A stretch of 64,000 nt of DNA from a virus: positions 22,656 through 86,655 of the IMG/VR virus record IMGVR_UViG_3300050119_000072. One strand, 5' to 3'. Below, one piece after another: positions 46,601 to 64,000 of this stretch. The position numbers and the translations under genes are program-made. The notes beneath the pieces are model-generated. The model made no database searches, was not told the origin of the DNA, and was given only the letters and a program-made list of their open reading frames with translations. Numbering within the stretch: position 1 is the stretch's first letter; the number at the start of each line of letters is the position of its first letter.

Positions 46601-49600
46601 GGCGCGTTTCGCGCGGTCATTGACGACCTGGACAAATTCAACGCCAACGAGATCGAGGCTCTGCGGTCGGCCCAGAACGGCGGCTGGAACGCTTACGACC
46701 AGATCAAGAAAAACCTCATCGCGCGCGGTGTCCCGGCTGACGAAGTCCGCTTTATCCAAGAGGCCAATAACGACGCCGAAAAGCAGGCCCTGTTCGATGC
46801 TGTCAATGACGGCCGTATCCGGGTGCTGATTGGCTCTACCCAGCGCATGGGCGCCGGCACCAACGTCCAGGAGCGCCTTGTCGGGCTGCACCATGGCGAT
46901 GTGACCTGGAAGCCGTCAGATATCGAACAGCGGGAAGGCCGCATTATCCGGCAGCTCAACAAATTGCTGGACAAGTACGGCAAGGATTTTGCCGTCGAAA
47001 TTCACAACTACGTCACCGAGCGCACGGTCGACGCCAAAATGTGGGATTTGAACTCCGAAAAACTGCGCATGATTAACGGCATCCGTAAGTACGACGGCGC
47101 CTTCAACATGGAGTTTGAGGACGAGGACGCCGTAGGCATGGCCGAGATCGCGGCCTTGGCCTCCGGTGATCCATTGCTCATGGAGCGCGTGAAGCTCGGC
47201 GGCGAAATTGAAAAACTGGAAATGCAGGAACGCGGCTTCCGCCGCAAAATGTTCGGCATTGAGGACGCGGTGGCTGGGGCACAGCGCGCCATCACCGACT
47301 ACCCCGCCAAGATCGTGGAAGAGAAAGCGGCGTCCGACGATATGTATCGGCGGGTCGACGCGCTCAAAAAGGCAGTCGACGCCCGCAGCGTCACGATCGA
47401 TGGCAAAACGTACAAGTCGCGCATGGAAGCGACGGTCGCCGCGACCGACCGCATTGCGGAGATCAGGGGCGCTGACGAGGGCGCGAAATACTCGATCAAT
47501 GTCGACGGCGCCGACCTCACCAACAAGGAGACGATCCACGCAGCGATCGCCAGCGCCTTGGGAGATCAGGAGCCGTTCGAGGCCAAGATCGGCGGGGAGA
47601 CGGTCCGCGGTCGCTACGCCGCGGCCCACGCCATCCTCGAAAAGGTTCGTCCGATTATTTCGGAGATCACGGTCGAAAACCCGGAGCACACGGTAAAGCT
47701 GGGGACCATGCTGGGTGCTGATTTGGAAGCGACCGCGCGCCGCTCGGCTGCCGACGACTTCTACGTGACGCTGGCCCTGCGCCAGGACGGCCGCACCCTA
47801 GCTGCCGCGCAGACGTCGGGCCCGGTCAGCCGAAAAGAGCCGGCGCCGGCGACAATAGCCAGCGGCATCCGCAACCTCGAAAAGGACATCAACAATATCC
47901 TGCTTTCGCGCGGCGCGCTGATGCAGTCCCGCGTGGACGCCGCGAAAAAGGATCTCCCGGGATTGACCGCCCAGCTTGGGCAGACCTTCCCGCAGGCCGA
48001 AAAGCTGGTGGCCTTGCGCGATCGCCAGCGCGATCTCATCAATGAGCTCGATAGGCGGACCAAAGAGGCCGAAGGCAAAGGTGGGCCGCTCCCGACGCCG
48101 CCGAAACTCATTGGCGCCGGCGGCCGCCCCGTCGACGCCAAACTGACGGGCGTCGATGCGGAACAAGACGCGTTTCTCAAATCCAAGGGGATGACCTGGG
48201 AAGAAGCCGCGGCTCTGAGCAACAACCACCTGCGCCAGCTAGATCGCCAGTGGAGCGACGAGCACCCTGGCGAGCATGTGCCGCTGGTGCGCGTTGAGCG
48301 CTTTGATCCGGCTGATATCGAGGCCGATCCGGCGCGCTTCCAATACAGGGACAACGTGGTCAACGCGGAGACCGGCGTTACCGACAAGCCGATGCAATCC
48401 GGGTGGCAGCAAACCGCGCCGATGGTCGTCTGGCAGGATAAGGCAGGAGGAAATTTCGTCGTCGACGGGCACCATCGCCTTGAGCGCGCGAAGGCGCTTG
48501 AAGCGGCCGGCGAGAAGGTGCCGCTCGATGCCATCACCTTGCGCGAGAAAGACGGCATTACGCCGCAAATTGCCAAGGATTTTGGCCAGCGCCGCAATGA
48601 GCATCGCGAGGCCAACCGAGACCTGCGCGCAATCCCGGACGTCGACGATTATTTCGCGGCGGTGAAAGAGCGTCAGGAAGCCAATTCGGAAGCTGGAATA
48701 CCCATTCGCGCCGCCAATTCGGCCGAGACTGGAGTGCAAGCGGTTGGCATGAATTCGTCGGCGGACGCACCGCCCTCGACCCAGCCTTTACCCGGCTCCC
48801 ATGTCTCGACCTTTAGCGAGCCGCCGGCCATTTTCAGCAGCCGCGAGACGCCGCCATCGATCTTTGAAGGACCGACCAGGACGGTGAAGTTCTCGGATTT
48901 CTCGTTGGGTGCCATCGATCCAGCCTCTAAGAAAAATATAGTACAAGGGTCGAGCGATTTCAACGCTTTGCACGCCGAGGCGCAAAAAAACAAGGCCAGC
49001 CTTCTCAATAGGTTAGAAGAAATTGCGCGGGACGTACCAGGCGCAAAGGTCTATGGCGCCCGAGTCAAGGACTTGCCGGGCCTCGTCGAGAAGATCACGG
49101 CCAAGGGTCGCGCTCCCAATACGATCTCGGACTATCTCGGCGCGCGCGTCATCGTTGACAGCCCGGAGGCCATGCACGCCTTCATCGATCGCCTCGATCG
49201 GACCGGCGCCATTATTGAGGCCGAGAATTTCATCCGGTCGAGCAAGTTCGGATACCGCGCCTATCACCTGCAAGTCGGGCTTGGCGACGGCATGTCGGCG
49301 GAGCTGCAACTGGTGCCGCGTCCGCTTGCCGATGTCATGAGCGCTTCGCACGCGCGGCGACAGCCTGTGAAGCGGCTTGTCGCCGGAAAATCTCCGGCAG
49401 ACGACGCGCGCATCGAGCGCGCGTTGGCCGCGTCAACCAAGATACTGGACACCGCCTGGGCAAAGGCACCGGAGGCGTGGCGCACCTATGATGAGGATCA
49501 GCACCAGCAGCCGGCGGCGTTCGCAGAAGAAGCGCCGCAGGGCTGGACCGGCGCCGACACCCTTCCCGACTACACCCGCGCCTATACCGATCTTGGGCCG

Positions 49601-52600
49601 TTCCGCGCCGAGCCGGGACAGCCCTTGGGGCGCCAGGCGCAGGCCCACGTCATTGAGCGCGGGCGCCGCACCGGGCTCGAGCACATGGTCGCCTTTGACG
49701 AGGGCGGCAACGTCCTCGCCAATGGCCATGGTTCGCACCACGATATCGAAGTGCCGGCAAACCTGATTGCCGCGCTGGACAATCCGAAGTCCAGGATTGT
49801 GGTGCACCATAACCATCCGTCCGACGGCTCATTGAGCACGGTCGATATTTCGCAGCTCGCTAGGCCCGGCTTGGCGGCGATCTGGGCGCATGGCCACAAC
49901 GGCATGGTCAGCCGCGCCTCACTCACGGAGTACGCACGCCAGCGGTTTGCCAATGACAGCACCGACAATTTTCGCAAAGCGCTTTATCGCCTGAGCGATA
50001 TTGTCGGCGACTCCTTCCTGGCGCCGCTGCGCAAGGCAGTCGATGGCGGACTCATTACCCCTAAACGCGGCGATCACCTTTACGGCTATATGCTCGGGCT
50101 GGCGCTGCACCGCGCCGGCGTCATCGACTACAGCACCAACCACGCGGAATTCGCCTCCGATCTCGACCGCCTCGCCCTCGGCCCATATATCGATAAAGCG
50201 GCCACGGCCACCGCAGGAGTTCTTTTCAATGACCCACGCTCCATCCTCACTACGGCTGATCGACGAGCCGACACCACTCGCCACATTGCCGATCTGGGAA
50301 CGTCATTTGACCGCACTGAGGCTCTTGCCGGCCGATACCGACCTCAAGCCGGAAATGATCTCGCGCGCCGAGCAAGTTATCGCCCGCAAGAAGGCGGACC
50401 GGGCCAACTAAGACTGCCGGGATTTGCGGAGAGCGCGTCCAAGTTTGGCGGCGGCAAAAAACCGCCGCGGCCGCCAGGCGCTACACCGGACGATCCGCAG
50501 CATCCGGCATCGCGGAGCATCCGCAGCAAGATTGCCGATGCGCTCGGCTCTGAGTTTGCCTTGGCCGCCAAGGAGAAATTGCAGGACTACAACGCCCGCG
50601 TGGAAAAGCTGCAAAAAGAGGGCGAGCGCCTACAGAACATGACGGAGGCGCGCGCCCACGGATGGGTATCGGACAACCCGGAGAGCCCGCTGCCGGACAA
50701 CCAGCAATTCTACACGCTCAAGCGTCTCTTCCCAGGCAAGCGCGACAACGTGCGCCGGGCCTTTTACTCCAAGCACTTTTTGCCGCTGCGCGACCTGATC
50801 CGCAAGTCAGGCATGACGAAGGAACAAGCCGGGGACTATCTCTATTACAAGCACGCGCCGGAGCGGAACTTAAACGTCGGCAAGCTCTATCCCGGCAAGA
50901 CGTTCTCGCATGGCCAGGGCGATCCGATCAGCGGCACCATCAAGCCGGCGCACCCCTTCAACGAAGCCATGCGCGATGAAACCGTTGTCGGGGCCTCCGG
51001 CATGTCGACGAAGGCCGCGCGCGAGGGCGCTGCGGCGATGGAGAACGGGCCCAAGGGTGCGGCGTTCAAAGAGCTTGGGCGGCGGGCTGCCGCCATCCGC
51101 CAGTTCATCCATGAGCAATATCTGCGCGGCCATCTGGAAAGCGCAAAGACGCTCGCCGAATGGCACCGCACAAGCCCCAATTATGTCCCCCTGCGCGGCT
51201 GGGAAGATACTGCCGATGCAAAGCCCTTCGCCGATCAATTCAGCGGGCGCGGCGGCGGTGATATCCGCGGTGGCGAGTCCAAGCGCGCGCTCGGGCGGCG
51301 CACCAAAGCCGATAACCCACTTGTCGGCCTGATCGACCAGGCCTATCGCGCTGTCGATCGGGCGGAGAAAAACCTTGCCCTGATCGGCATGGGGCGCCTG
51401 CTGCAGGGCATCGGCCCGGAGGGGCGCAAAGAGATCGGCGTTGCCTTTGAACGCGGGCGCCCGAAGTCGGTCGTCGATCCCGGCACTGGGTTGGTTAAGA
51501 CTGTTGACGACGCCTTCGACGCCATGCGCGAGAACGCCGTCCACTTCAAGCACAACGGCAATGACCATTACGCCGTGTTCGACGACCTCAAGCTTGCCCG
51601 CGCCATCAAGCGCTGGTCGCCGTGGTCGGTTGCGCCGATCGAGTTGGCAAACCGGATCATGGGCAAATGGAAGAGCGCCCTGACGCATTACAACCCGCTC
51701 TTTATGCCGCGGCACATGGCGCGGTACTACATCGAGGGCCTCGCCAACTCATTCGAGCAGATGGAACACGGCTCGTTTAAGCCGATGAAATACGCGATCG
51801 ACGCGTTCCCGCTCATCGGTCCGGCGACGCGGGCGATCATCGCGCGGGAGCGCGGGCAGCCGGCCGGCGAACTCGGCCAGCATTGGGACGAAATGAAAGC
51901 CGGCGGCGGCGCGTCATCGCTCTTTTCAATGCGCGATTACGACGAGCTGCTAACGCGCCTGAGCAAAGAAGCAAAGGCGATAGGCCGCAAGGGGTACGAC
52001 CCGCGCGAGATTATGTCGATGGTGACGGAAGCCGTCGATAAGTTCACGTCCATGATCGACAACTCGACGCGCCTCGCCGCCTTTAGCCAGGCGCGGAAGG
52101 CTGGAAAGACAATTCAGCAGGCTTCCCTTGTCGCCAGGGAGGCGACAGTCGATTACAACCTCAAGGGCGATTGGGCAAAGGTGCTCGGCACCTGGGAGCC
52201 ATTCCAGAACGTCGCTACGCAAACCGGCTACCGCATGGGGGCGTCGCAAGGGCGCTCCCGCGTCATGCGCAAGGTGTTCCTTGGCATGACCGCCATCGGC
52301 TTTTTGTTGGGCATGTGGAACTACTACTTCGCCGGCGAGGACAAGGACAAAGTCCCATTCTTCGACAAAATACCGGAATGGACGAAGAGCAAGGAGCTTG
52401 CGCTTTATGTCGGCCTCACCGATTCCAAGGGGCGCCCGCAGCCAATCAGTTGGCCGGCGCCGTTTAACTATGCCTTCCCGGTCACCGCCGGATACGGCCT
52501 CGCCAGTCTATTCTTCAACCCGCATAGCTGGCCGCGCCAACTGGCGATGGTCGTTAAATCCTTTCTGTCCTCGTTCTCGCAAATTGGCGAAGATGGGCTC

Positions 52601-53062
52601 TCCTGGCACAATCTAGCGCCGGCGCTCATCCGGCCGATCATGGATCTCGGTTTGAACAAGTCGTGGACCGGCGGAATGATCCACACCCAACCGGAATGGC
52701 AAAAGGGTCCGAACGCTCAATCCGGTTTCCGGTTTACCGATCCGGTATGGAAAGAGGTCGCGCAATTCATCAATAATCACTCAGGCGGTACAGCAAGCCG
52801 TTCTGGGCTTTTGGATTTCTACCCGGAGGATATCCATTACCTCATCAATTCGTTCTTCGGCGGTCAAATGCGGGTGGGCGAAGATATCGCCGCTGTCTCG
52901 AGTGCTGTAGCAAAAGGTCAGCCAATTCCGCTTACAAAGGTCCCGATCGGCAGTATTTTCTACGGGACCGACTACGATAAATCTGACCAGGCAGCACAGC
53001 GCGAACGAGTGCACCAAGGCAACCATCCTTGGGAGCGGCCGATTTTCGGCATCGCCAGATAA
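37634..53062 (+). CDS. Giant virion polyvalent protein (DarB/DdrB-like, 5,142 codons)
   Basis: One open frame of 5,142 codons. Segments in order: hydrophobic Gly/Ala region (about 200-360); InPase-like GPSGYFKGTIGADGDHVDV (about 560-660); DdrB/ParB-like with ESGNGRVAALRAL (about 885-1250); N6-adenine methyltransferase with ETSLGTGNF (1752-1760) and NPPF (1817-1820); SNF2-type helicase with GSGKT (2536-2540), DEAH (2704-2707) and a late QREGRIIRQ; coiled coil (about 3190-3480); ParB-like DGHHR (3611-3615); RelA/SpoT-like (about 3780-3910); JAB-like HHNHP (4058-4062); LPD38-like C-terminus with a membrane helix near 4878-4899. Known relatives are injected with phage DNA to block restriction; the role here is inferred. 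Confidence 0.88.
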   Translation: MALADQLGAVDPQGIVTGLVADQAPDLVQNDGSVDPQSVLDRLIRKGLSSDQQKALSDAKTNAAPDGIDQFGKTKEQVDAEPQPDFTQFGSATPQSAQPIPGGGTVAGGAWAGAKSLAQAPITATGKAIQAAARTVNDITPTMVQTAGGEGSPLSVEDLTPPPAEPVQKNPVLSKVYNAGQAVRNFGEQQIPVSEAEKKTYPIWTGVGSAVGTLAPLVALGALNPEAAIAGGAALFGGSGSQDTYEAAIAHGADQETASAAANLSGLANAALGSAPIGLVLRPFQKFMPAASGYAVRMLAQAAQNGVVFAGIGEAQEYIGEQIAKAYDPKAGYSLDANRLIVSLLSGGLLGAGHAAYDRYATGKAVSDLYKLNQPAAGGEADDTAPGALPRPDAGPGPGPGPGQGPGPDTGTGAGAGAGPGEAEPEFQPDFSPAKRSTLEKVAAAYSTNLKDGHSAKDISSWSDAQLMAYLNDADKRSNPAKADAPVATPGTPDNPINLQTPQDLAHAVSVADETSSHAQGEANNAPRVHAVWNDLPITLETAGANNVRRGVAEDGTPWEQSMGGPSGYFKGTIGADGDHVDVTVGPQPGSKQVYVIDEKAADTGDFRQHKVMIGFGNQIDALNAYTQRTQGKSAKMVGGVRLFTPEQLKDWLKTGDTKAPLSDTMTAAAKAKDESILPEDAVPTSQHTDAVDGALRAAGVNPDAVRPADKARAAEIHAEGAPADQAFPVAVVRGLVDSGHITPDQVREAIGDEAAEGVLGTGGRAQRGARAETHGAGPGGEAAAPANGVGPRGNEGGNAEAASGGESGEPAVGQKPAGSAAGGEQRRENNGGAGNGAAAGVANDHNVAGSEPGERAEQAHPEHKATETPAAALIGARVKSMPEHKVVAADGKSVRVVPVVTEASKLIASSDPGYDKDIQPRERDRAAAQAQVREIATRLDPERLGYSAEADRGAPIVGPDGMVESGNGRVAALRALYRTKSPNAEHYRAWLAVQGVDLSKYKEPVLVRQRVTELDAAGRRGFAIAANQAATLSMSAPERALADADHLSSNVLGLIRNGANLGAAENRPFVRAFIAALPASERSALANKAGALSQEGLTRVKNAVLAKAYGDADVISRITEATDDETRSVSNGLVMSAPIWAKFRGEVEDGRVRREFDLTPDLMEAVKRVTDIRSRGENLAGFLAQHDGFDQLKSEVETWMRMMYDPHGKRVASAADIAKAISFYAEEAGKVTTDPRLGLDIPEIEPDEIQRGAHAKAQDVPTGARVGNGPSGNAARQAPGRRGAGEGGEEPGRPEQRSADGGRLRDQPSLFDEPGPDGKRQSVLPGTEPISDARLAQRRALERLRPKAEQKPAYEGLFSPREKQVDLEEAIAKAKPEGIEAVAVRDPQSGRVWSAKAVLHPDLIERAAQDLGVPEDKAADRLELGFKSDRGRFLTRAEASALVGAGELHATELSWTQRELAEAGVESYPGAAKAKAPVTPAVRAPIAKAAAAPKIKKQGAPAAPSLFDWEERNNERPRTQGDGEKTLGGMAPGPGEGPQVTRAPERVLAGSGGQRADGDRAPDEAGLPGIRGQGSRPAEVHPAAAGAGSGRPGRGNAAGTGGERKPVPEVPTGPNVKPAERPTLPAINYRITDETELGKGSEGVKFRDNIAAIQALKNIEREDRRATPEEQRQLARYVGWGGLANAFPDLKGAFKPDWKDRGEQLQGLLNKDEHRAAQHSTLAAHYTSKTVIDAMWKAAQRLGFKGGLSLETSLGTGNFIGLVPDAIAGKTRFVGVELDGVTARIAKLLYPQETVLHSGFQRVPMPDGEFVLSIGNPPFGSESLRFQHKPALQGYSIHNQFFLAALDALQPGGLHIGVVSHFLMDAQDQSARQAMAVKANLLGAIRLPDTAFKENARTEVVTDIVLMQRRTPADESQMAELVRLANTPGHGKEAQDARAVARKKLTDEAPWIETDKVRDPLGGEPMTVNQYFAKRPKMIVGRLERSGTMRGKEEVNVKLAKDADFAGMLDAAVENLPKNKINLDNEAIDNTLERYKTLADSIQIALAGHEVGHVEFNDRGQLTQISERETPSGDYEPTRRVLNAQSPWSRKLLMDPNGQWYTLEPKLNAKGEKVKTGLRLVYERKTFPDNKVPENLRLGQQRYDRLADLARLRDLTRKQIVLETQDAPPADMENNRGQLAASYRAFTGKHGLLHEPSNMRLLNEMPDGPLLMSLESGYRPAVTTAKAARTGQPVQKPSAKPSAILSRRVVPKYEPPTKAETVGDAIGIVLSERGRMDLARIGDLLGIPEDKVPEKLSEGDKPLAFLNPETKDWEARHDYLTGPVRQKLIAAREAGLAKNVSELEAVQPERWGADKVTPYVGSNWIPPKVYEDFAKQLLGVDGAAVNYSKATNSFNMLTDEYGGDKQAEWGTPDMPADAILRGMMNSRIPKVMREVSDGNGGTRRYEDKEASSLVVLKANEIASAFADWVFRDADRRNQLVDIFNDKFNTRVQRQHDGAFLALPGKNPEYGLRRHTRNAIRRGIYERNMLVDHCVGSGKTFLAIARAMERRRMGLSRKPMVAVPNHLVEQWAAEAHRLYPGAKVLAAGKNQFNRQNRRKLFAKIATGDHDLVIVPHSSFGFIGISPETELRFLEDQLRVAHEAVQAAAEEAAASGIGGFRKPFTVKEAERLVTNIETRMDALRSARRDNMLSFEQMGVDDLTVDEAHEFKNLFYSSRMTGVRGMGDKTGSQKSFDLYNKVRVLNESPTGTVTFLTGTPISNSAVEMYTMMRYLAAKELRELGIEHFDAWRSQFVSAEPKWEPTESGGLKEVTRLGRNWSNMRALMDLYYSFTDSVTQEDINKWYAEDNDGADFPIPKVVGGGRQTTVVQPTPAQQSILHQVIDGFNDLPNEPDPDVRNAERLRLMDRARKVSLDARAVDPRNPSKEEGGKLEAISDQAARIYHKWTKDLGAQLIFLDRSVPKAKGDDKIIKQYDDLIARRDKAVADKDEGAFRAVIDDLDKFNANEIEALRSAQNGGWNAYDQIKKNLIARGVPADEVRFIQEANNDAEKQALFDAVNDGRIRVLIGSTQRMGAGTNVQERLVGLHHGDVTWKPSDIEQREGRIIRQLNKLLDKYGKDFAVEIHNYVTERTVDAKMWDLNSEKLRMINGIRKYDGAFNMEFEDEDAVGMAEIAALASGDPLLMERVKLGGEIEKLEMQERGFRRKMFGIEDAVAGAQRAITDYPAKIVEEKAASDDMYRRVDALKKAVDARSVTIDGKTYKSRMEATVAATDRIAEIRGADEGAKYSINVDGADLTNKETIHAAIASALGDQEPFEAKIGGETVRGRYAAAHAILEKVRPIISEITVENPEHTVKLGTMLGADLEATARRSAADDFYVTLALRQDGRTLAAAQTSGPVSRKEPAPATIASGIRNLEKDINNILLSRGALMQSRVDAAKKDLPGLTAQLGQTFPQAEKLVALRDRQRDLINELDRRTKEAEGKGGPLPTPPKLIGAGGRPVDAKLTGVDAEQDAFLKSKGMTWEEAAALSNNHLRQLDRQWSDEHPGEHVPLVRVERFDPADIEADPARFQYRDNVVNAETGVTDKPMQSGWQQTAPMVVWQDKAGGNFVVDGHHRLERAKALEAAGEKVPLDAITLREKDGITPQIAKDFGQRRNEHREANRDLRAIPDVDDYFAAVKERQEANSEAGIPIRAANSAETGVQAVGMNSSADAPPSTQPLPGSHVSTFSEPPAIFSSRETPPSIFEGPTRTVKFSDFSLGAIDPASKKNIVQGSSDFNALHAEAQKNKASLLNRLEEIARDVPGAKVYGARVKDLPGLVEKITAKGRAPNTISDYLGARVIVDSPEAMHAFIDRLDRTGAIIEAENFIRSSKFGYRAYHLQVGLGDGMSAELQLVPRPLADVMSASHARRQPVKRLVAGKSPADDARIERALAASTKILDTAWAKAPEAWRTYDEDQHQQPAAFAEEAPQGWTGADTLPDYTRAYTDLGPFRAEPGQPLGRQAQAHVIERGRRTGLEHMVAFDEGGNVLANGHGSHHDIEVPANLIAALDNPKSRIVVHHNHPSDGSLSTVDISQLARPGLAAIWAHGHNGMVSRASLTEYARQRFANDSTDNFRKALYRLSDIVGDSFLAPLRKAVDGGLITPKRGDHLYGYMLGLALHRAGVIDYSTNHAEFASDLDRLALGPYIDKAATATAGVLFNDPRSILTTADRRADTTRHIADLGTSFDRTEALAGRYRPQAGNDLARRASYRPQEGGPGQLRLPGFAESASKFGGGKKPPRPPGATPDDPQHPASRSIRSKIADALGSEFALAAKEKLQDYNARVEKLQKEGERLQNMTEARAHGWVSDNPESPLPDNQQFYTLKRLFPGKRDNVRRAFYSKHFLPLRDLIRKSGMTKEQAGDYLYYKHAPERNLNVGKLYPGKTFSHGQGDPISGTIKPAHPFNEAMRDETVVGASGMSTKAAREGAAAMENGPKGAAFKELGRRAAAIRQFIHEQYLRGHLESAKTLAEWHRTSPNYVPLRGWEDTADAKPFADQFSGRGGGDIRGGESKRALGRRTKADNPLVGLIDQAYRAVDRAEKNLALIGMGRLLQGIGPEGRKEIGVAFERGRPKSVVDPGTGLVKTVDDAFDAMRENAVHFKHNGNDHYAVFDDLKLARAIKRWSPWSVAPIELANRIMGKWKSALTHYNPLFMPRHMARYYIEGLANSFEQMEHGSFKPMKYAIDAFPLIGPATRAIIARERGQPAGELGQHWDEMKAGGGASSLFSMRDYDELLTRLSKEAKAIGRKGYDPREIMSMVTEAVDKFTSMIDNSTRLAAFSQARKAGKTIQQASLVAREATVDYNLKGDWAKVLGTWEPFQNVATQTGYRMGASQGRSRVMRKVFLGMTAIGFLLGMWNYYFAGEDKDKVPFFDKIPEWTKSKELALYVGLTDSKGRPQPISWPAPFNYAFPVTAGYGLASLFFNPHSWPRQLAMVVKSFLSSFSQIGEDGLSWHNLAPALIRPIMDLGLNKSWTGGMIHTQPEWQKGPNAQSGFRFTDPVWKEVAQFINNHSGGTASRSGLLDFYPEDIHYLINSFFGGQMRVGEDIAAVSSAVAKGQPIPLTKVPIGSIFYGTDYDKSDQAAQRERVHQGNHPWERPIFGIAR
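39891..40256 (+). CDS. Overprinted small gene in the giant ORF (+1 frame), copy 1
   Basis: 121 codons, +1 relative to the giant frame. It starts MKQPKGYWAPAAGLNAAHAL, with an AGAGAGG-type ribosome site upstream, and runs to a TGA. Almost all third codon positions are G or C, as in real genes here, while the giant frame over the same bases gives a Gly/Ala/Glu-rich linker with mixed third positions. The product is basic, Ala/Pro rich, with no known domain. Confidence 0.5.
   Translation: MKQPKGYWAPAAGLNAAHALRHMAPALVGRLPRPQMASVHAAMKVGMPKLPAAAKVASPLSAKSPLAVPRAGSNVGKTMAGPATALPQGSPMTTTSLGANPASALSKPILSTKLPKLPPLP
41376..41669 (+). CDS. Overprinted small gene in the giant ORF (+1 frame), copy 2
   Basis: 97 codons in the same +1 frame. 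MKSNVVHMRKPKTFRPGPGL is basic and followed by a helix LGRHRGDVGLAKAGKNLVDQ, then a Ser/Pro tail. High G/C at third positions supports coding. The giant frame there encodes a Gly/Arg/Glu linker (QDVPTGARVGNGPSGNAARQ). No ribosome site is obvious, so expression is less sure than for the gene at 42177. Confidence 0.42.
   Translation: MKSNVVHMRKPKTFRPGPGLAMGRAAMRLGRHRGDVGLAKAGKNLVDQSNAALTAGDSATSPASSTSQDPTASDSPSSPAPSLSAMPGLPSDAPSSD
42177..42485 (+). CDS. Overprinted small gene in the giant ORF (+1 frame), copy 3
   Basis: 102 codons, the most convincing of the nested genes. MSVQELKAMARKHWEEWLPD, a helical middle (AQTEIEHLMKLGYQEFEAKE) and a conserved-looking VALPKFILLPPEP segment form a normal soluble protein. 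GGGAAGAA lies upstream of the ATG. Third positions are overwhelmingly G/C, while the giant frame over the same bases uses many A/T third positions and reads as a low-complexity Gly/Pro/Arg linker. I recall similar small proteins in phages, but the function is unknown. Confidence 0.62.
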   Translation: MSVQELKAMARKHWEEWLPDRVKDLKSQGRLNESLQGAADSAQTEIEHLMKLGYQEFEAKEVALPKFILLPPEPDQDGLDEEMRQELAEKESQYRKFPPVQT

Positions 53063-58222: not shown

Positions 58223-58779
58223 TGGCAAAAACAGTCCACATGAACCGCCGCGCCTACATCAACCCGCTGCCCGGCTATTCGGAAGCGGCGCAGCGTGCCG
58301 ATATTCTAAACAGCGGCCCGATTGACGAATGGTACGTCGAAAGCCAGCGCGTTACCCGCGCCGACTTCATCAAGCACCTGCGGGCCGGGGATCGCGCCGT
58401 AGTTGCCAACTTTGCCTGCTTGGCGAAGGCGCACGGCAGAATCGACAGCAGGTTGTCTGACCTACTGGAAGCTGCCGGGGATATCAGGGCCAAGTGCTGC
58501 ATCCTGATGGCACAGACCGATTTATGGGTCAGTAAGGCGTCATTGGCTGCGGCCCGCGCCTTCCTGCTCAAAGAGCGCAACGTCAAGAACGGGTCGGCCA
58601 AGAAGATCAATCTAACCGACGCACAAGTGAAGCGGGTGTTGGAGGTCTGCGACAGCAAGCGGTACACCAACGACCGGCAGCGCCTCACTGCCCTCAAGAA
58701 AGAGGGCATAGACATTGGCCGCACGTTCATGGTGACGACCATACCACAGATTGCCCGCGAGCGCGGGATAACGATTTAG
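58222..58779 (+). CDS. Resolvase-like regulator candidate
   Basis: 185 residues from the ATG at 58222, only seven bases after the -10 box, so the mRNA is probably leaderless. The first part (EWYVESQRVTRADFIKHLRA, GDRAVVANFACLAKAHGRID) resembles the non-catalytic side of serine-resolvase domains, but the catalytic Ser of that family is not visible. A helical C-terminus (NLTDAQVKRVLEVCDSKRYT, then IPQIARERGIT) could bind DNA. As the first gene after the operator, it may be the autoregulator; this is an inference. Confidence 0.55.
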   Translation: MAKTVHMNRRAYINPLPGYSEAAQRADILNSGPIDEWYVESQRVTRADFIKHLRAGDRAVVANFACLAKAHGRIDSRLSDLLEAAGDIRAKCCILMAQTDLWVSKASLAAARAFLLKERNVKNGSAKKINLTDAQVKRVLEVCDSKRYTNDRQRLTALKKEGIDIGRTFMVTTIPQIARERGITI

Positions 58780-58787
58780 GAGCGACC

Positions 58788-59255
58788 GTGAGTGTTCACT
58801 TTAGCAGCAAGACCGACCTGTGGGAAACGCCGCAAGCGTTCTTCGACAAGTACCATGCTCGCTACAAGTTCACGTTCGACGTTTGCGCCACTTACGAGAA
58901 CGCCAAGTGCGAAAGATTTTATACCGAAAAAGAAAATGCCCTCACTCAGCCGTGGGAGGGCATCTGCTGGATGAATCCGCCCTATGGTCGGACAATCGGA
59001 TTGTGGATGCGAAAGGCGTTTGACAGTTTCAAGGAAGGCGCAACGGTCGTCTGTCTTGTCCCGGCTCGCACTGATACGAATTGGTGGCACGACTACGCGA
59101 TGAAAGGCGAGATTGAGTTTATCAAAGGCCGTCTAAAGTTCGGCGGCCACAAAAACTCAGCGCCGTTTCCTTCTGCGGTTGTCGCCTTCGATGATCGCGT
59201 GAGAATGTGGAAACATAATTATTGGGATGCCCGTCAAGCATCCCAGTCAAAATAG
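58788..59255 (+). CDS. DNA N6-adenine methyltransferase (phage Dam-type), copy A
   Basis: 155 residues from a GTG at 58788 with TTAGGAG upstream. SSKTDLWETPQAFFDKYHAR opens the family; FTFDVCAT, then WMNPPYGRTIGLW carry the NPPY catalytic motif (residues about 63-66), and FIKGRLKFGGHKNSAPFPSA ends the core. This matches the short phage enzyme (PF05869 type) that methylates adenine in DNA, usually to protect it from restriction. An identical second copy, disrupted, lies at 62331-63997. Confidence 0.88.
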   Translation: MSVHFSSKTDLWETPQAFFDKYHARYKFTFDVCATYENAKCERFYTEKENALTQPWEGICWMNPPYGRTIGLWMRKAFDSFKEGATVVCLVPARTDTNWWHDYAMKGEIEFIKGRLKFGGHKNSAPFPSAVVAFDDRVRMWKHNYWDARQASQSK

Positions 59256-59264
59256 GAGAATTTA

Positions 59265-59642
59265 ATGCTCAAAGAACTTCGCGGGGCGAACGCTGCACGG
59301 CAAGCAGAGTGGGACCCGGACGACAAGATCACGCTCGCCTATCGCGGCAATGAATTGGCTGGCGAGGTTGGTGAGGCCTGCAACGTCATCAAGAAGCTTG
59401 CCCGCGAGCGTCTTGGCATACGCGGTAGCCGGTCCACGGTTGGCGATCTTGCCGACGAATTGGCCGATGTAATTATTTGCGTCGATTTGATCGCCATGTC
59501 CGAAGGCATCGACCTAGACGCGGCAGTGTCGCGCAAGTTCAACTGGGCCTCAGAAAAATATGGCTTGAAAACTCGGCTCGCCAGCGAGCATGACCGACGC
59601 TTGGATATGGAACGGCGAAATCGTTCGCTGCTCGAACAATAA
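59265..59642 (+). CDS. MazG-like nucleotide pyrophosphohydrolase
   Basis: 125 residues. RGNELAGEVGEACNVIKKLA holds the ExxE of the all-alpha NTP pyrophosphatase fold, and DLADELADVIICVDLIAMSE the second ExxD pair. It hydrolyses NTPs or related nucleotides; phage MazG proteins may alter host alarmone or nucleotide pools. ATAGGAGAATTTA precedes the ATG. Confidence 0.82.
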   Translation: MLKELRGANAARQAEWDPDDKITLAYRGNELAGEVGEACNVIKKLARERLGIRGSRSTVGDLADELADVIICVDLIAMSEGIDLDAAVSRKFNWASEKYGLKTRLASEHDRRLDMERRNRSLLEQ

Positions 59643-59655
59643 TTAGGAGCCGAGC

Positions 59656-60105
59656 GTGAAAGAGCCGGTCGATCACATCTTGCGCCCGCAGCTTCCTTGG
59701 CGCGATGGCGCGAACGCTATCACTGAGTGCGGCTATGACGGCACCAAGGTAAAGACAATTACACGCGATGAGTTTCAGCAGCGTCTAAAAGACTTCGGGC
59801 GGCAGCGAACGGCAATGATTAGCTGCATGACTTGTTCGGACACCGCTGGACGTTACGGTACTTGGGACGATGACCCGCGCCGCGCTATCCAGCGCGAGGT
59901 CGAATGGGAATGTCGCTGGCGAAACACTAACGAACATGGCCTGCGCTTGAGGGATGAACTAACCGCTATCGCCACCTTGATCGAAGCGCACCGCGACGAG
60001 TTTGATGCCCTTGTCTCCGGTAACGAACAGCGCCGCGAGTGGCTTGAGAAAAAGGCGGCGATGCAGAGCAAGCCGAAAGAGTCCACAAAACCACGTTTGA
60101 TATAG
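59656..60105 (+). CDS. Hypothetical protein (GTG start)
   Basis: 149 residues from a GTG with TTAGGAG upstream. PWRDGANAITECGYDGTKVK, then SCMTCSDTAGRYGTWDDDPR with a CxxC, and a long charged helix (RDELTAIATLIEAHRDEFDA). I do not recognise a family. Confidence 0.6.
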   Translation: MKEPVDHILRPQLPWRDGANAITECGYDGTKVKTITRDEFQQRLKDFGRQRTAMISCMTCSDTAGRYGTWDDDPRRAIQREVEWECRWRNTNEHGLRLRDELTAIATLIEAHRDEFDALVSGNEQRREWLEKKAAMQSKPKESTKPRLI

Positions 60106-60116
60106 AGGAGTTTGAA

Positions 60117-60284
60117 ATGGCCGGCCTACTCGCTTTAGGACTCCTCGGTATGATTATCTCGTGCGTATGCGCGCTACTGGCGCTCGGAGATATGAACGAC
60201 CGTTTCAGGGTCATCGTATGTCTGCTCGGCATGGCGTTCGGTGCCGCGCTCTTGTTCGGTGCCATATCTCAGTCGCCGGTTTGA
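60117..60284 (+). CDS. Small membrane protein
   Basis: 55 residues, missed by length-limited searches: two hydrophobic segments (MAGLLALGLLGMIISCVCAL; VIVCLLGMAFGAALLFGAI) around a short charged loop. TAGAGGAG lies upstream of the ATG. Function unknown. Confidence 0.58.
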   Translation: MAGLLALGLLGMIISCVCALLALGDMNDRFRVIVCLLGMAFGAALLFGAISQSPV

Positions 60285-60304
60285 ATTAAGAGGAGCCGAC
60301 CGGC

Positions 60305-60490
60305 ATGTGCAGCACTTTTCTCGGCCCCGGTGAAAGCGGTCCTTGGGCGCGGCTTGGCTGGCGCAAGGCTCGCGCTGGTGATCGGGCGGCGGTCTATACT
60401 TCTAGCTGCGTGACTTGTCGCCGCGTTTGGATTTGGCCGCACAGTACAACGCCAAAAATTCCTGCCGTGTTTTATATCGGCACAAGGTAG
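60305..60490 (+). CDS. Small hypothetical protein
   Basis: 61 residues starting MCSTFLGPGESGPWARLGWR; SSCVTCRRVWIW has a C-x-x-C. AGAGGAG is upstream. Probably metal-binding; function unknown. Confidence 0.5.
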   Translation: MCSTFLGPGESGPWARLGWRKARAGDRAAVYTSSCVTCRRVWIWPHSTTPKIPAVFYIGTR

Positions 60491-60499
60491 AGGAGCGAC

Positions 60500-61282
60500 A
60501 TGCGCGTTCTCGATCTTTTCAGCGGCATAGGCGGCTTTAGCCTTGGCCTAGAGCGCGCGGGGATGCAGACCGTGGCTTTCTGTGAGAGCGAGCCTTTTGC
60601 GCGCAAAGTCTTAGCTAAACACTGGCCGGAGATTCCGATTTATGACGATGTTCGCAGCCTTACCGCAGAGCGACTTGTTTGCGACGGCGTTAGCGCCGAA
60701 ATCATCTGCGGAGGATTCCCGTGCCAAGGAATCTCAACTGCCGGCCAACACAAAGGTCTCGGCGACGACCGATCCGGTCTGTGGTCTGAGTTCGCCCGTC
60801 TTATTGGCGAAGTACGACCGCGCTACGCGATTGTGGAAAACGTTGGCACCCTCACGCGGAACGGGCTCGGCCGCGTTCTCGGAGACTTGGCCGAGATCGG
60901 GTTCGATGCGGAATGGGATCGCATACCAGCGTCAGCCGTTGGCGCGCCACACCGCCGGGATAGAACCTGGATCGTGGCCTACCCCCAAGGCGCAGGAGGA
61001 CGGCCGATCTCCTGCGGCGTGGGAGAAGGCACGGATGCGTGGCTACGAAGTCAGGAAAGCGAAGGGCATTTCTTCGGGTGGTCCGGCGAGTTCGCGCGGC
61101 TCCTTGTCGGTCGCGGTGCAAATCGCCGAGGGACGCCGTGGGAAGTTGAACCCCGACTGGAGAGAATGGCTAATGGGGTTCCCGATCAAATGGACAGAAC
61201 TCGCGTGACCGGATTGGCCGTTGTCCCGCAAGTTGTCGAACTAATCGGGCGCGCGATTGTGTGCGCCGAAGGTCTGAATTAA
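60500..61282 (+). CDS. C5-cytosine DNA methyltransferase
   Basis: 260 residues. Motif I DLFSGIGGFSLG (residues 5-16), motif IV GGFPCQG with the catalytic Cys near 76, motif VI ENV near 114, and motif VIII HRRDRTWIVAY near 153 are all present; the C-terminus has RMANGVPDQMDR and VVPQVVELIG. It methylates cytosine in DNA. The target-recognition region is short. A second + strand frame over 60642-61208 encodes another protein (next entry). TAGAGGAG is upstream. Confidence 0.9.
   Translation: MRVLDLFSGIGGFSLGLERAGMQTVAFCESEPFARKVLAKHWPEIPIYDDVRSLTAERLVCDGVSAEIICGGFPCQGISTAGQHKGLGDDRSGLWSEFARLIGEVRPRYAIVENVGTLTRNGLGRVLGDLAEIGFDAEWDRIPASAVGAPHRRDRTWIVAYPQGAGGRPISCGVGEGTDAWLRSQESEGHFFGWSGEFARLLVGRGANRRGTPWEVEPRLERMANGVPDQMDRTRVTGLAVVPQVVELIGRAIVCAEGLN
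60642..61208 (+). CDS. Methyltransferase-associated protein overprinted on the C5 methylase gene
   Basis: 188 codons in another + frame inside the methylase gene. LLAKYDRATRLWKTL, then FSETWPRSGSMRNGIAYQRQ, WPTPKAQEDG and LNPDWREWLMGFPIKWTELA match a family I recall as separate phage proteins (S-E-T-W-P-x-S-G-x-x-R, W-P-T-P and L-N-P-x-W-x-E-W-L-M-G-F-P). That both frames carry family-typical motifs suggests true dual coding. No ribosome site is clear at the ATG; a shorter start further on is possible. Confidence 0.6.
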   Translation: MTMFAALPQSDLFATALAPKSSAEDSRAKESQLPANTKVSATTDPVCGLSSPVLLAKYDRATRLWKTLAPSRGTGSAAFSETWPRSGSMRNGIAYQRQPLARHTAGIEPGSWPTPKAQEDGRSPAAWEKARMRGYEVRKAKGISSGGPASSRGSLSVAVQIAEGRRGKLNPDWREWLMGFPIKWTELA

Positions 61283-61294
61283 GAGGAGAATTTG

Positions 61295-61486
61295 ATGAGC
61301 GCAAAAATAGATGCTCGCACAATGGCGGTTGCTAAAATCATTAGCAACAAAAACGGCCATGCCGATAACTATGCTTGGGAGATTGAAGGCGGTGGCTTCA
61401 TTCCCGCATGGGCCATGTACGTCAGCGAAGCGACGAAGGCAATTGCTCAAGCTGATCTAATTGTCCAAGTCGGCAAGACGAAATAG
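61295..61486 (+). CDS. Small hypothetical protein
   Basis: 63 residues with AAGAGGAG upstream. IDARTMAVAKIISNKNGHAD, then YAWEIEGGGFIPAWAMYVSE: a helix followed by a sheet. Family unknown. Confidence 0.55.
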   Translation: MSAKIDARTMAVAKIISNKNGHADNYAWEIEGGGFIPAWAMYVSEATKAIAQADLIVQVGKTK

Positions 61487-61494
61487 GAGCGACC

Positions 61495-62322
61495 GTGCAG
61501 CCGTTGGCGATTGATCTGTTTTGTGGCCTTGGCGGCTGGACTGACGGCCTCCTGGCCGAAGGCTATGACGTGATCGGCTTCGACATTGAGCGGCACGAAT
61601 ACGGCGAGCATCGCTACCCGGCCCAACTCGTCATTCAGGACGTTTGCACGCTCCACGGCTCGCAGTTCAAGGATGCCGCCTTGATCGTCGCCTCACCGCC
61701 ATGCCAAGCCTACAGCTATATGGCGATGCCGTGGAAGCTTGCGAAGGCTAAGGCTAAGGCGATCAGAGCAGACACTACTGGCGAAAAGCTCGCAGCCCTC
61801 AATAAACTGTTTAACGAATGCTTCCGCATTCAGCGCGAGGCGTCCCTTGCCGCGGGACAGCACATTCCTATGCTGGTCGAGAATGTGCGCGGTGCTCAGC
61901 CTTGGGTGGGTCGCGCTCAAGGAAACTACGGGTCGTTCTATTTGTGGGGTGACGTGCCGGCATCAATGCCGCCGACTTTGAAAGCTGCCAAGGTTCCCGG
62001 CTTTCGGTTTGACGGGTCTGGAAAGTCTTTCCAGACCGCCTCCGTGAAACACCACAACGATGCGGTGAAGGTGCCGAGCGACAGCGGGCGCCGTACTGAC
62101 AAAGGCAAAGGTGCGAGGTTCGCGTCACGCGATTGTGGGATTGAAGGCGCTGGCATAAAAAACGGAAACGATTGGTTTGGCGCTGGCGAGAATTGTTCTG
62201 CTCAGCGTCGGCACGGGTCGAAGTCAATCGGTCGCAAGATGGCGTCAGCGATGATCGCCAAGATACCGCTTCCGCTCAGTCGCCACATCGCGGCTGTGTA
62301 CGCAATCCCTCACGATATTTAG
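61495..62322 (+). CDS. Second C5-cytosine DNA methyltransferase
   Basis: 275 residues from a GTG with ATAGGAGCGACC upstream. Motif I DLFCGLGGWTDGL (about 7-19), then SPPCQAYSYM with the catalytic Cys (about 70), and MLVENVRGAQPWV (about 126) with the ENV motif. The rest, from about residue 170, differs from the first methylase and probably sets a different target. Together they would modify cytosines in two contexts. Confidence 0.85.
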   Translation: MQPLAIDLFCGLGGWTDGLLAEGYDVIGFDIERHEYGEHRYPAQLVIQDVCTLHGSQFKDAALIVASPPCQAYSYMAMPWKLAKAKAKAIRADTTGEKLAALNKLFNECFRIQREASLAAGQHIPMLVENVRGAQPWVGRAQGNYGSFYLWGDVPASMPPTLKAAKVPGFRFDGSGKSFQTASVKHHNDAVKVPSDSGRRTDKGKGARFASRDCGIEGAGIKNGNDWFGAGENCSAQRRHGSKSIGRKMASAMIAKIPLPLSRHIAAVYAIPHDI

Positions 62323-62330
62323 GAGCGACC

Positions 62331-62579
62331 GTGAGTGTTCACTTTAGCAGCAAGACCGACCTGTGGGAAACGCCGCAAGCGTTCTTCGACAAGTACCATG
62401 CTCGCTACAAGTTCACGTTCGACGTTTGCGCCACTTACGAGAACGCCAAGTGCGAAAGATTTTATACCGAAAAAGAAAATGCCCTCACTCAGCCGTGGGA
62501 GGGCATCTGCTGGATGAATCCGCCCTATGGTCGGACCATGCTTATCCGGTTGACACCCAAGAACTGTGAGACCCACTAG
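62331..62579 (+). pseudogene. 5-prime half of Dam copy B
   Basis: GTG start as in copy A, identical through NPPYGR, then the frame runs into the inserted element and ends after MLIRLTPKNCETH. It keeps the catalytic NPPY but lacks the C-terminal half, so methylation is unlikely. Confidence 0.85.
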
Positions 62580-62590
62580 GGCTAGATGAC

Positions 62591-62965
62591 ATGAACGAAG
62601 CATTCTTGATCGGCGGCGGTCAGATTCACCGGATCATCGGCGAGCGCGGCGAGACGCCCCCTTGTCCGGAGGCCAAGTTCAAACGCGGCGACGTGGTGAA
62701 GGTCCGCCGTAATCAGGCGGTAGGCCATTTCCCGCCCGAATTGATCGTGCTTGTCGCAATCCCACCCGGCTTTTCGCCGGATGACGCGATGGCCGATTTG
62801 TTCGGGGAAGCGCGCCCGCTGATGAAGCAGGTTGGCCGCCGCGTCGTCTCCTACATCCTCTGCCGTGAGGGCGACCCTACGGCCTACACCTGCCGAGAGC
62901 GCGATTTGCTGCCGAGCGGAAAAGAGGCGGTCGAAATCGGCACAGTTTCGAGGGGCGCGCCATGA
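62591..62965 (+). CDS. Cassette gene 1, unknown
   Basis: 124 residues. Strand-rich start (FLIGGGQIHRIIGERG; FKRGDVVKVRRNQAVGHF) with a KRGDVV barrel-like turn, then ELIVLVAIPPGFSPDD and a C-half with YILCREGDPTAYTCRERDLL. No family recognised. Its stop overlaps the next start (ATGA). The leader differs from the cassette-type leader used by neighbouring genes, consistent with a foreign origin. Confidence 0.6.
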   Translation: MNEAFLIGGGQIHRIIGERGETPPCPEAKFKRGDVVKVRRNQAVGHFPPELIVLVAIPPGFSPDDAMADLFGEARPLMKQVGRRVVSYILCREGDPTAYTCRERDLLPSGKEAVEIGTVSRGAP

Positions 62966-63396
62966 CGGACGCCGCAAAACGACGTTTCGGGCCGACACCG
63001 TGGACTTGCACGGTTTGCGGCGGTGAAAACGAGATGTTCCGCTCGGAGTGCAAACACTGTGAACGCGAGCCGCGCCGGACACTCACTGACGGAACGCAGA
63101 TTTATCCGGGGCATCGCAGCATCCTGAAGGAAGGCCCGCGCGCGGGCCAGCAAGAGGGGTATGTGGTGCTGGCGGACGAAGAGCGCGCCAAAGGCTTTGT
63201 GAGGCCCGTGCGGAGCTCCTATAGGCACCTAAAGTGCGGGACCGTCACGACAATGGGCCAAACGCTGGCGGAAACCTACGCCCGCGACCCCAAATTCTAC
63301 AGCGGCACGTTCTGCTGCGGTTGCGGCACGCATTTCCCTGTGGGGGAGGCTGGCGAGTTTGTCTGGGATGGGACTAACGAAAAGGTCGGGACATGA
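62962..63396 (+). CDS. Cassette gene 2, double zinc-finger protein
   Basis: 144 residues. WTCTVCGGENEMFRSECKHC (about 14-33) is a zinc ribbon like the RanBP2/rubredoxin type; a second C-G-C-G site occurs at FCCGCGTHF (about 120-128). The middle is mixed. It may bind nucleic acid or partner proteins. Coupled to both neighbours by ATGA. Confidence 0.6.
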   Translation: MTDAAKRRFGPTPWTCTVCGGENEMFRSECKHCEREPRRTLTDGTQIYPGHRSILKEGPRAGQQEGYVVLADEERAKGFVRPVRSSYRHLKCGTVTTMGQTLAETYARDPKFYSGTFCCGCGTHFPVGEAGEFVWDGTNEKVGT

Positions 63397-63671
63397 CGAC
63401 CAAGCATTCCCCGCTCAGCGCCCTCAAAGCGCAGGCCGACAAGATCGCGGCAACACTAAAGGCAGCCGATCGCGGCGAGAAAATCGACGTGCGGTTTGCC
63501 GAAAAGATCGACGCGGCGCGCGGTAAGGACGTTTTCAAGGTCGGAATCGTCATGGATGACAAGGTCATCATGATCGACATGCCGTGGGCGACAATCCGCA
63601 GCGCCAGCGAAGCCGGGTTGTCCGAATACATCGTGCGGCAGATGCGGGAGGCGCGCGATGCCGTCAACTGA
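63393..63671 (+). CDS. Cassette gene 3, unknown
   Basis: 92 residues, charged. SALKAQADKIAATLKAADRG is a helix; KIDAARGKDVFKVGIVMDDK and VIMIDMPWATIR are strand-like, then a C-terminal helix LSEYIVRQMREARDAV. No family recognised. Last gene in the cassette. Confidence 0.58.
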   Translation: MTTKHSPLSALKAQADKIAATLKAADRGEKIDVRFAEKIDAARGKDVFKVGIVMDDKVIMIDMPWATIRSASEAGLSEYIVRQMREARDAVN

Positions 63672-63697
63672 GCAAACACAACATGTAGGGGGCTCCA

Positions 63698-63997
63698 ATG
63701 CCGTTGGGTGTCAACCGGATAAGCATGGGTCGGACAATCGGATTGTGGATGCGAAAGGCGTTTGACAGTTTCAAGGAAGGCGCAACGGTCGTCTGTCTTG
63801 TCCCGGCTCGCACTGATACGAATTGGTGGCACGACTACGCGATGAAAGGCGAGATTGAGTTTATCAAAGGCCGTCTAAAGTTCGGCGGCCACAAAAACTC
63901 AGCGCCGTTTCCTTCTGCGGTTGTCGCCTTCGATGATCGCGTGAGAATGTGGAAACATAATTATTGGGATGCCCGTCAAGCATCCCAGTCAAAATAG
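63698..63997 (+). pseudogene. 3-prime half of Dam copy B with a new start from the element
   Basis: An ATG in the right end of the element (AGGGGG upstream) opens a frame that reads MPLGVNRISMGRT and then joins the Dam frame exactly at IGLWMRKAFDS, to the normal stop. It lacks the N-terminal part including NPPY. A 99-residue product could be made but should not be catalytic. Confidence 0.75.
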
Positions 63998-64000
63998 GAG

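What the first reader, a model, noticed from the sequence alone, without database searches (positions are those of the whole stretch)
62537..63727. Transposase-less cassette with 24-bp inverted repeats and 8-bp target duplication
A perfect inverted repeat, a target-site copy in the intact paralogue, and three tightly coupled genes (one zinc-finger) with no recombinase. The leaders differ from those of all neighbouring genes. This may be a non-autonomous element carrying phage accessory genes, a type of mobile moron not well described.
Basis: seen in the sequence. Interest (0 to 1): 0.85.

Follow-up and report, generated by a model that had tools for sequence, protein, structure and literature searches.

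The report
Phage gene cassette moved by IS1595
A 1.19-kb piece of DNA carrying three phage genes but no transposase has jumped into a duplicated DNA-methylase gene of a bacterial virus, and its ends match a widespread family of IS1595-type insertion sequences that carry assorted phage genes, so it is a known kind of mobile cassette in a setting where such elements are thought to be rare.

Summary
Window 62537-63727 is a 1,191-bp insertion with perfect 24-bp terminal inverted repeats (TIRs). An 8-bp duplication (GGTCGGAC) flanks it, and the intact Dam paralogue shows the empty site. The three genes overlap by ATGA and no IS1595 transposase lies in the record. The TIR 20-mer occurs at 59 places in viral contigs and 20 in bacterial genomes. 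Correctly facing TIR pairs have a perfect 8-bp duplication in 45 of 62 cases; outward-facing control pairs in 0 of 17. Elements longer than 1.5 kb encode an IS1595-family transposase (NCBIfam NF033547, E about 1e-54), often with passenger genes; shorter ones lack it. Plasmid ISAcr1 has the same end type. The element is therefore an IS1595-type mobile insertion cassette (MIC), presumably moved in trans. Homologues of its cargo are ordinary phage genes elsewhere, with low dN/dS. New here: these cassettes are common in phages, carry different phage genes, and some share an inner end motif at a fixed position 36 followed by a ribosome site. The contig closes on itself through the 127-bp end of the Dam repeat, so both Dam copies are probably real, but which one is interrupted is uncertain. 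Verdict: new variant of a known kind. Transposition itself was not shown.

The parts
62529..62536 (.). Left copy of the 8-bp target duplication GGTCGGAC
   Evidence: Sequence; present once in the intact paralogue at 58986-58993
62537..62560 (+). Left terminal inverted repeat CATGCTTATCCGGTTGACACCCAA
   Evidence: same 24-mer at ends of transposase-bearing elements L006, L026, L027, L045, L073
62550..62555 (+). TTGACA inside the TIR, a possible -35 box reading into the cassette (inferred; no convincing -10 at 17 bp in this element)
   Evidence: 14 of 52 ends with TTGACA have TAnnnT at 17 bp, at most 1 at the other spacings; by inspection these are mainly transposase-bearing elements
62571..62585 (+). 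Left inner end motif ACCCACTAGGGCTAG (CCC at position 36 of the element)
   Evidence: same motif at position 36 in other transposase-less cassettes; similar motif in ISAcr1 and Tardibacter IS ends
62591..62965 (+). Cargo gene A, 124 aa, unknown function (weak SH3-like match only)
   Evidence: dN/dS about 0.10-0.14
62962..63396 (+). Cargo gene B, 144 aa, zinc-ribbon-like N-terminus plus a conserved phage domain with invariant H89, C92, C118, C121
   Evidence: (337 viral relatives); dN/dS about 0.06-0.09
63393..63671 (+). Cargo gene C, 92 aa, unknown function, usually next to B in phages
   Evidence: dN/dS about 0.09-0.19
63679..63693 (-). Right inner end motif (GCCCCCTACATGTTG on the - strand), also at position 36
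   Evidence: shared with the right end of L012 over 47 bp at 94%
63704..63727 (-). Right terminal inverted repeat
63728..63735 (.). Right copy of the 8-bp target duplication GGTCGGAC
62331..62536 (+). N-terminal half of the interrupted Dam-type N6-adenine methyltransferase, broken after ...NPPYGRT
   Evidence: family PF05869
63728..63997 (+). C-terminal half of the interrupted methyltransferase
58774..59258 (+). Intact identical paralogue (gene 58788-59255) with the empty target site

Best explanation
The element is a mobile insertion cassette (MIC) of the IS1595 family, ISAcr1-like in its ends. Two transposon ends enclose three phage accessory genes in place of a transposase. An IS1595 transposase made elsewhere (by the host, a prophage or a co-infecting phage) recognised the 24-bp ends and inserted the cassette into one of two identical Dam methylase genes of this phage, duplicating 8 bp. 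The cargo reads inward from the left end and is probably expressed from the end or from the phage operon. The intact second Dam copy would make the insertion harmless. Shown: ends, duplication, empty site, family of ends, linked transposases, phage origin and low dN/dS of the cargo. Inferred: mobilisation in trans, expression, benefit of the cargo.
For: Perfect TIRs, 8-bp duplication and empty site. The same ends with 8-bp duplications bound many elements; 18 of 50 distinct ones hold a transposase and 32 do not (strict control test 45 of 62 against 0 of 17). The transposases are IS1595 family by PF12762/PF12760 and NF033547. The exact 24-bp TIR is an end of transposase-bearing elements in phages and of one beside a full-length IS1595 transposase in a Hyphomicrobiales MAG contig with bacterial-type genes, L073. 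Plasmid ISAcr1 has CCTTGCCTATCCGGTTGACTCCC ends, an 8-bp duplication and the inner motif. Other cassettes carry PAPS-reductase-like, methyltransferase-like and ASCH-like phage genes. Flanking genes are phage genes, among them terminase, portal and head proteins. A, B and C homologues occur without TIRs in other phages. dN/dS is low.
Against: No transposase was found in this genome, and no second copy of this exact A-B-C cargo between two TIRs was found, so movement of this cassette as a unit is inferred from the ends, duplication and empty site. The contig is a metagenome assembly closed through a repeat. Which transposase moves it is unknown.
Confidence: 0.9

Rival explanations
1. The element is a decayed transporter IS that carried A, B and C as passengers beside its transposase and later lost the transposase, rather than a cassette formed by capturing phage genes between two ends.
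For: Transposase-bearing relatives have the order end, passengers, transposase, end, so deletion of the transposase would give this layout.
Against: No transposase remnant is left and the cargo ends close to the right TIR. The inner motif at position 36 was found only in transposase-less phage elements in this set. The solo TIR after gene C in L093 suggests that ends can sit beside B-C in a phage genome.
Confidence: 0.35
2. Assembly artefact: the interrupted and intact Dam copies are variants from different genomes joined by the assembler, so the element may not lie in this genome or at this site.
For: The copies are 100% identical, the contig end lies exactly at the repeat end and the contig closes through a 127-bp repeat of assembler k-mer size.
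Against: The two copies have different flanks on both sides (upstream 58773 against 62316; downstream MazG gene against contig start), so the graph needs two copies. The element itself has all hallmarks of transposition and relatives elsewhere. Even if the pairing of flanks is swapped, the element remains.
Confidence: 0.07
3. The cassette is inert hitch-hiking DNA: the ends are mobile but the cargo gives no advantage to the phage.
For: The functions of A, B and C are unknown.
Against: Intact, overlapping reading frames and dN/dS of 0.06-0.19 against phage relatives, though this mostly reflects selection in the donor lineages.
Confidence: 0.3

Closest known systems
Mobile insertion cassettes (MIC231 of Bacillus cereus, mic-qnrD, mic-qnrS2; PMC3913671, PMC3129680)
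   Same: Inverted repeats, target duplication, passenger genes, no transposase, movement in trans proposed or shown
   Different: Described examples are in bacteria and plasmids, with other IS families or unknown ones and with resistance or other bacterial genes; here IS1595 ends, a phage genome and phage genes
IS1595 family transporter IS (tISCpe8, MTnSag1; reviewed in PMC5704250, after Siguier 2009)
   Same: IS1595 transposase, passenger genes beside it in the autonomous relatives (8-bp duplications seen for our elements; 8 bp reported for ISApl4, PMC12561309)
   Different: The window element has no transposase; relatives sit in phages and carry methyltransferase-like and unknown genes
ISAcr1 (Acidiphilium plasmids, IS1595 family)
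   Same: End type TGCCTATCCGGTTGAC, inner motif ACCCACTAAATGTAG or similar, 8-bp duplication; about 64% identical to the L036 transposase
   Different: Simple IS without cargo; outermost bases CCTTG instead of CATG
IS1595-related MITE of ISHwa6 in Haloquadratum walsbyi (PMC3852290)
   Same: 25-bp inverted repeats, 8-bp duplication, no transposase
   Different: 165 bp and too short for cargo; in an archaeon

Membership tests
Mobile insertion cassette | Two transposon inverted repeats with target duplication | tested here: met
Mobile insertion cassette | Passenger genes and no transposase between the ends | tested here: met
Mobile insertion cassette | A cognate IS with the same ends exists | tested here: met
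   The exact 24-mer is an end of transposase-bearing elements L006, L026, L027, L045, L073
Mobile insertion cassette | Moved in trans by that transposase | not testable with these tools
   Needs a transposition assay
IS1595 family (end type of the window element) | 8-bp target duplication | tested here: met
IS1595 family (end type of the window element) | Ends similar to those of a named IS1595 member | tested here: met
   ISAcr1 and Tardibacter IS ends
IS1595 family (autonomous element) | IS1595 DDE transposase with zinc ribbon inside the element | tested here: not met
   Absent from the window element and its record; present in relatives. So it is a derivative, not an autonomous IS
MITE | Short, without coding capacity | tested here: not met
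   1,191 bp with three genes

The most novel reading that the evidence does not exclude
Phages share a dedicated cassette format: IS1595 ends with an inner motif at fixed position 36 followed by a ribosome site and a start codon, into which different phage accessory genes are swapped and which is spread between phages by transposases supplied by hosts or other phages. This would be a transposition-based route for moron genes, comparable in logic to integron cassettes.
Probability: 0.3. Interest if true: 0.8.

Novelty: new variant of a known kind. Interest (0 to 1): 0.6.

Why it matters
Transposable elements are said to be few in phages (PMC9600943, citing Leclercq and Cordaux 2011), and how morons enter phage genomes is mostly put down to recombination. 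A family of IS1595 cassettes with phage cargo, found in dozens of viral contigs, offers a concrete and testable second route. The defined ends, an empty site in the same genome and candidate transposases make a direct transposition test possible.

Tried and rejected
Transposase in the phage's own genome: none found. Function of A, B, C by Pfam, PHROGs, NCBIfam, PADLOC, PDB sequence and fold searches: nothing beyond weak zinc-ribbon and SH3 hints, and a fold match of B to an uncharacterised HHTV-1 protein. A direct -35/-10 promoter for the cassette: TTGACA lies in the TIR but no clear -10 sits at 17 bp here; that pairing is seen mainly in transposase-bearing elements. The inner motif as a general phage leader: a stricter form occurs at 21 places in viral contigs, 7 of them with a recognisable TIR variant upstream (4 known cassettes and 3 new ones, L221, L226, L231) and the rest in a few repeated unrelated contexts. 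Paper searches for phage MICs or phage IS1595 found no direct description; the paper library lacks most subscription journals.

Full report
What is there. The window is bases 22,656-86,655 of an 86,655-base IMG/VR record. At 62537-63727 lies a 1,191-bp segment with perfect 24-bp inverted repeats, flanked by GGTCGGAC on both sides. It interrupts a Dam-type N6-adenine methyltransferase gene (PF05869). A second, intact copy lies at 58774-59258, 100% identical over 220 and 273 bp on the two sides of the insertion, and has GGTCGGAC once. The segment holds three genes with ATGA overlaps and no transposase.

Assembly. The window end is the contig end. The first 127 bases of the contig equal the last 127, and both equal the end of the Dam repeat. 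127 is a usual assembler k-mer size, so the contig most likely represents a circular map closed through this repeat. The two Dam units have different sequence on both sides: downstream of copy 1 comes the MazG-like gene, downstream of copy 2 the contig start. The duplication is therefore probably real. The assembly cannot decide which copy carries the element, because each shared half (220 and 273 bp) is longer than k.

The ends belong to a family. The 20-mer CATGCTTATCCGGTTGACAC occurs at 59 places in viral contigs and 20 in bacterial genome contigs, at least nine of the latter from Desulfobacteraceae MAGs. Inward-facing pairs of the 15-bp core have an exact 8-bp duplication in 45 of 62 distinct cases; outward-facing neighbours, a control, in 0 of 17. 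With a slightly looser criterion 50 distinct elements were listed: 18 with a transposase (1,567-2,563 bp) and 32 without (168-1,191 bp). The window element is the longest without. One pair of identical short elements has different duplications within one viral contig (L056), as expected of recent jumps. Target sites lean to GTTCGAAC (that listing was selected for duplications, so only its base pattern is informative).

Transposase. The long elements encode 337-350-residue proteins with DDE_Tnp_IS1595 and its zinc ribbon, over the NCBIfam cut-off for IS1595 transposases (NF033547). Plasmid relatives at about 64-65% identity include ISAcr1. ISAcr1 ends read CCTTGCCTATCCGGTTGAC, with an 8-bp duplication and the inner motif described below. 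The exact 24-bp TIR of the window is an end of transposase-bearing elements L006, L026, L027, L045 and of an element in a Hyphomicrobiales MAG contig with bacterial-type genes, L073; L073's other end was not recognised.

Architecture. In transposase-bearing elements the end with TTGACA is the upstream end, followed by passenger genes and then the transposase. TAnnnT follows TTGACA at 17 bp in 14 of 52 ends, at most once at the neighbouring spacings tested, which suggests an inward promoter. Twelve ends of transposase-less elements, the window's two included, have CCCNCTA at position 36 (one at 37), none of the transposase-bearing ones do, and the pattern was seen once in 100 flanks. Where it leads into a gene, the motif reads ACCCACTAGATGTAGGAG followed by a start codon. 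Searching viral contigs for a stricter form of the motif alone found three further cassettes with diverged TIRs, the motif again at 36 and a far TIR 0.4 kb away; two of them show an 8-bp duplication by inspection (L226, L231). Plasmid ISAcr1-type elements carry a similar motif nearer the end, so it may be an inner transposase site that doubles as a leader. That role is inference.

Cargo. Gene B has 337 relatives in viral contigs. In the 80 examined, B sits in phage genomes without a TIR next to it, except L093; C often follows B; A stands in the same group in L082 and L091/L092 in other orders. Cultured Synechococcus phages hold B-C too. L093 has a solo TIR just after C and the inner motif before B but no left TIR in its record, as if a related element had lost its left end. 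dN/dS for A, B and C against relatives is about 0.06-0.19, with synonymous sites near saturation in most pairs. B has an invariant H-C...C-C set and a confident predicted fold, with no solved relative found. Other cassettes carry a PAPS-reductase-like protein (phrog_424), a methyltransferase-like protein (phrog_56, weak) and an ASCH-like protein (phrog_3193). Genes flanking the elements include terminase, portal, head, DNA polymerase and integrase, so the carriers are phages or prophages.

Mechanism. Most likely an IS1595 transposase acting in trans moved a cassette of phage genes into one of two Dam genes. Harmlessness thanks to the intact copy, expression and benefit are inferred.

Known or new. 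Mobile insertion cassettes and IS1595 transporter elements are known (PMC3129680, PMC3913671, PMC5704250), as is an IS1595 MITE with 25-bp repeats and 8-bp duplication (PMC3852290). Transposable elements are reported to be few in phages (PMC9600943). I found no description of IS1595 cassettes with phage cargo in phages, but the paper library lacks most subscription journals. I file it as a new variant of a known kind.

Noticed in passing
window 58774-59258 and 62317-64000: A 485-bp unit (leader plus Dam gene) is duplicated at 100% identity 3.5 kb apart, with borders at the TAGGAG leader sequences, as if gene units in this phage recombine at their leaders.
   Followed up: partly
G000:C1:1-127 and 86529-86655: Identical contig ends of 127 bp that coincide with the end of the Dam repeat; the record is probably a circular map of about 86.5 kb.
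   Followed up: partly
window 37634-53062: A single open reading frame of 5,142 residues, about a quarter of the window.
   Followed up: no
window 58788-62322 and L209:1796-2707: The phage carries several DNA methyltransferase genes: Dam type, two C5 type (one weak) and a D12-class N6 type.
   Followed up: no
L016 5624-13112; L056 3377-6454: Viral contigs with several IS1595-type elements within a few kilobases, including identical 235-bp copies at different sites in L056.
   Followed up: partly
L064-L080 (Desulfobacteraceae MAGs): Many 195-223 bp MITE-like copies with the same TIR core in Eth-SRB2 and related genomes.
   Followed up: no
L093 4950-5650: B and C genes with a solo right TIR and a left inner motif but no left TIR: apparently a one-ended remnant.
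   Followed up: partly
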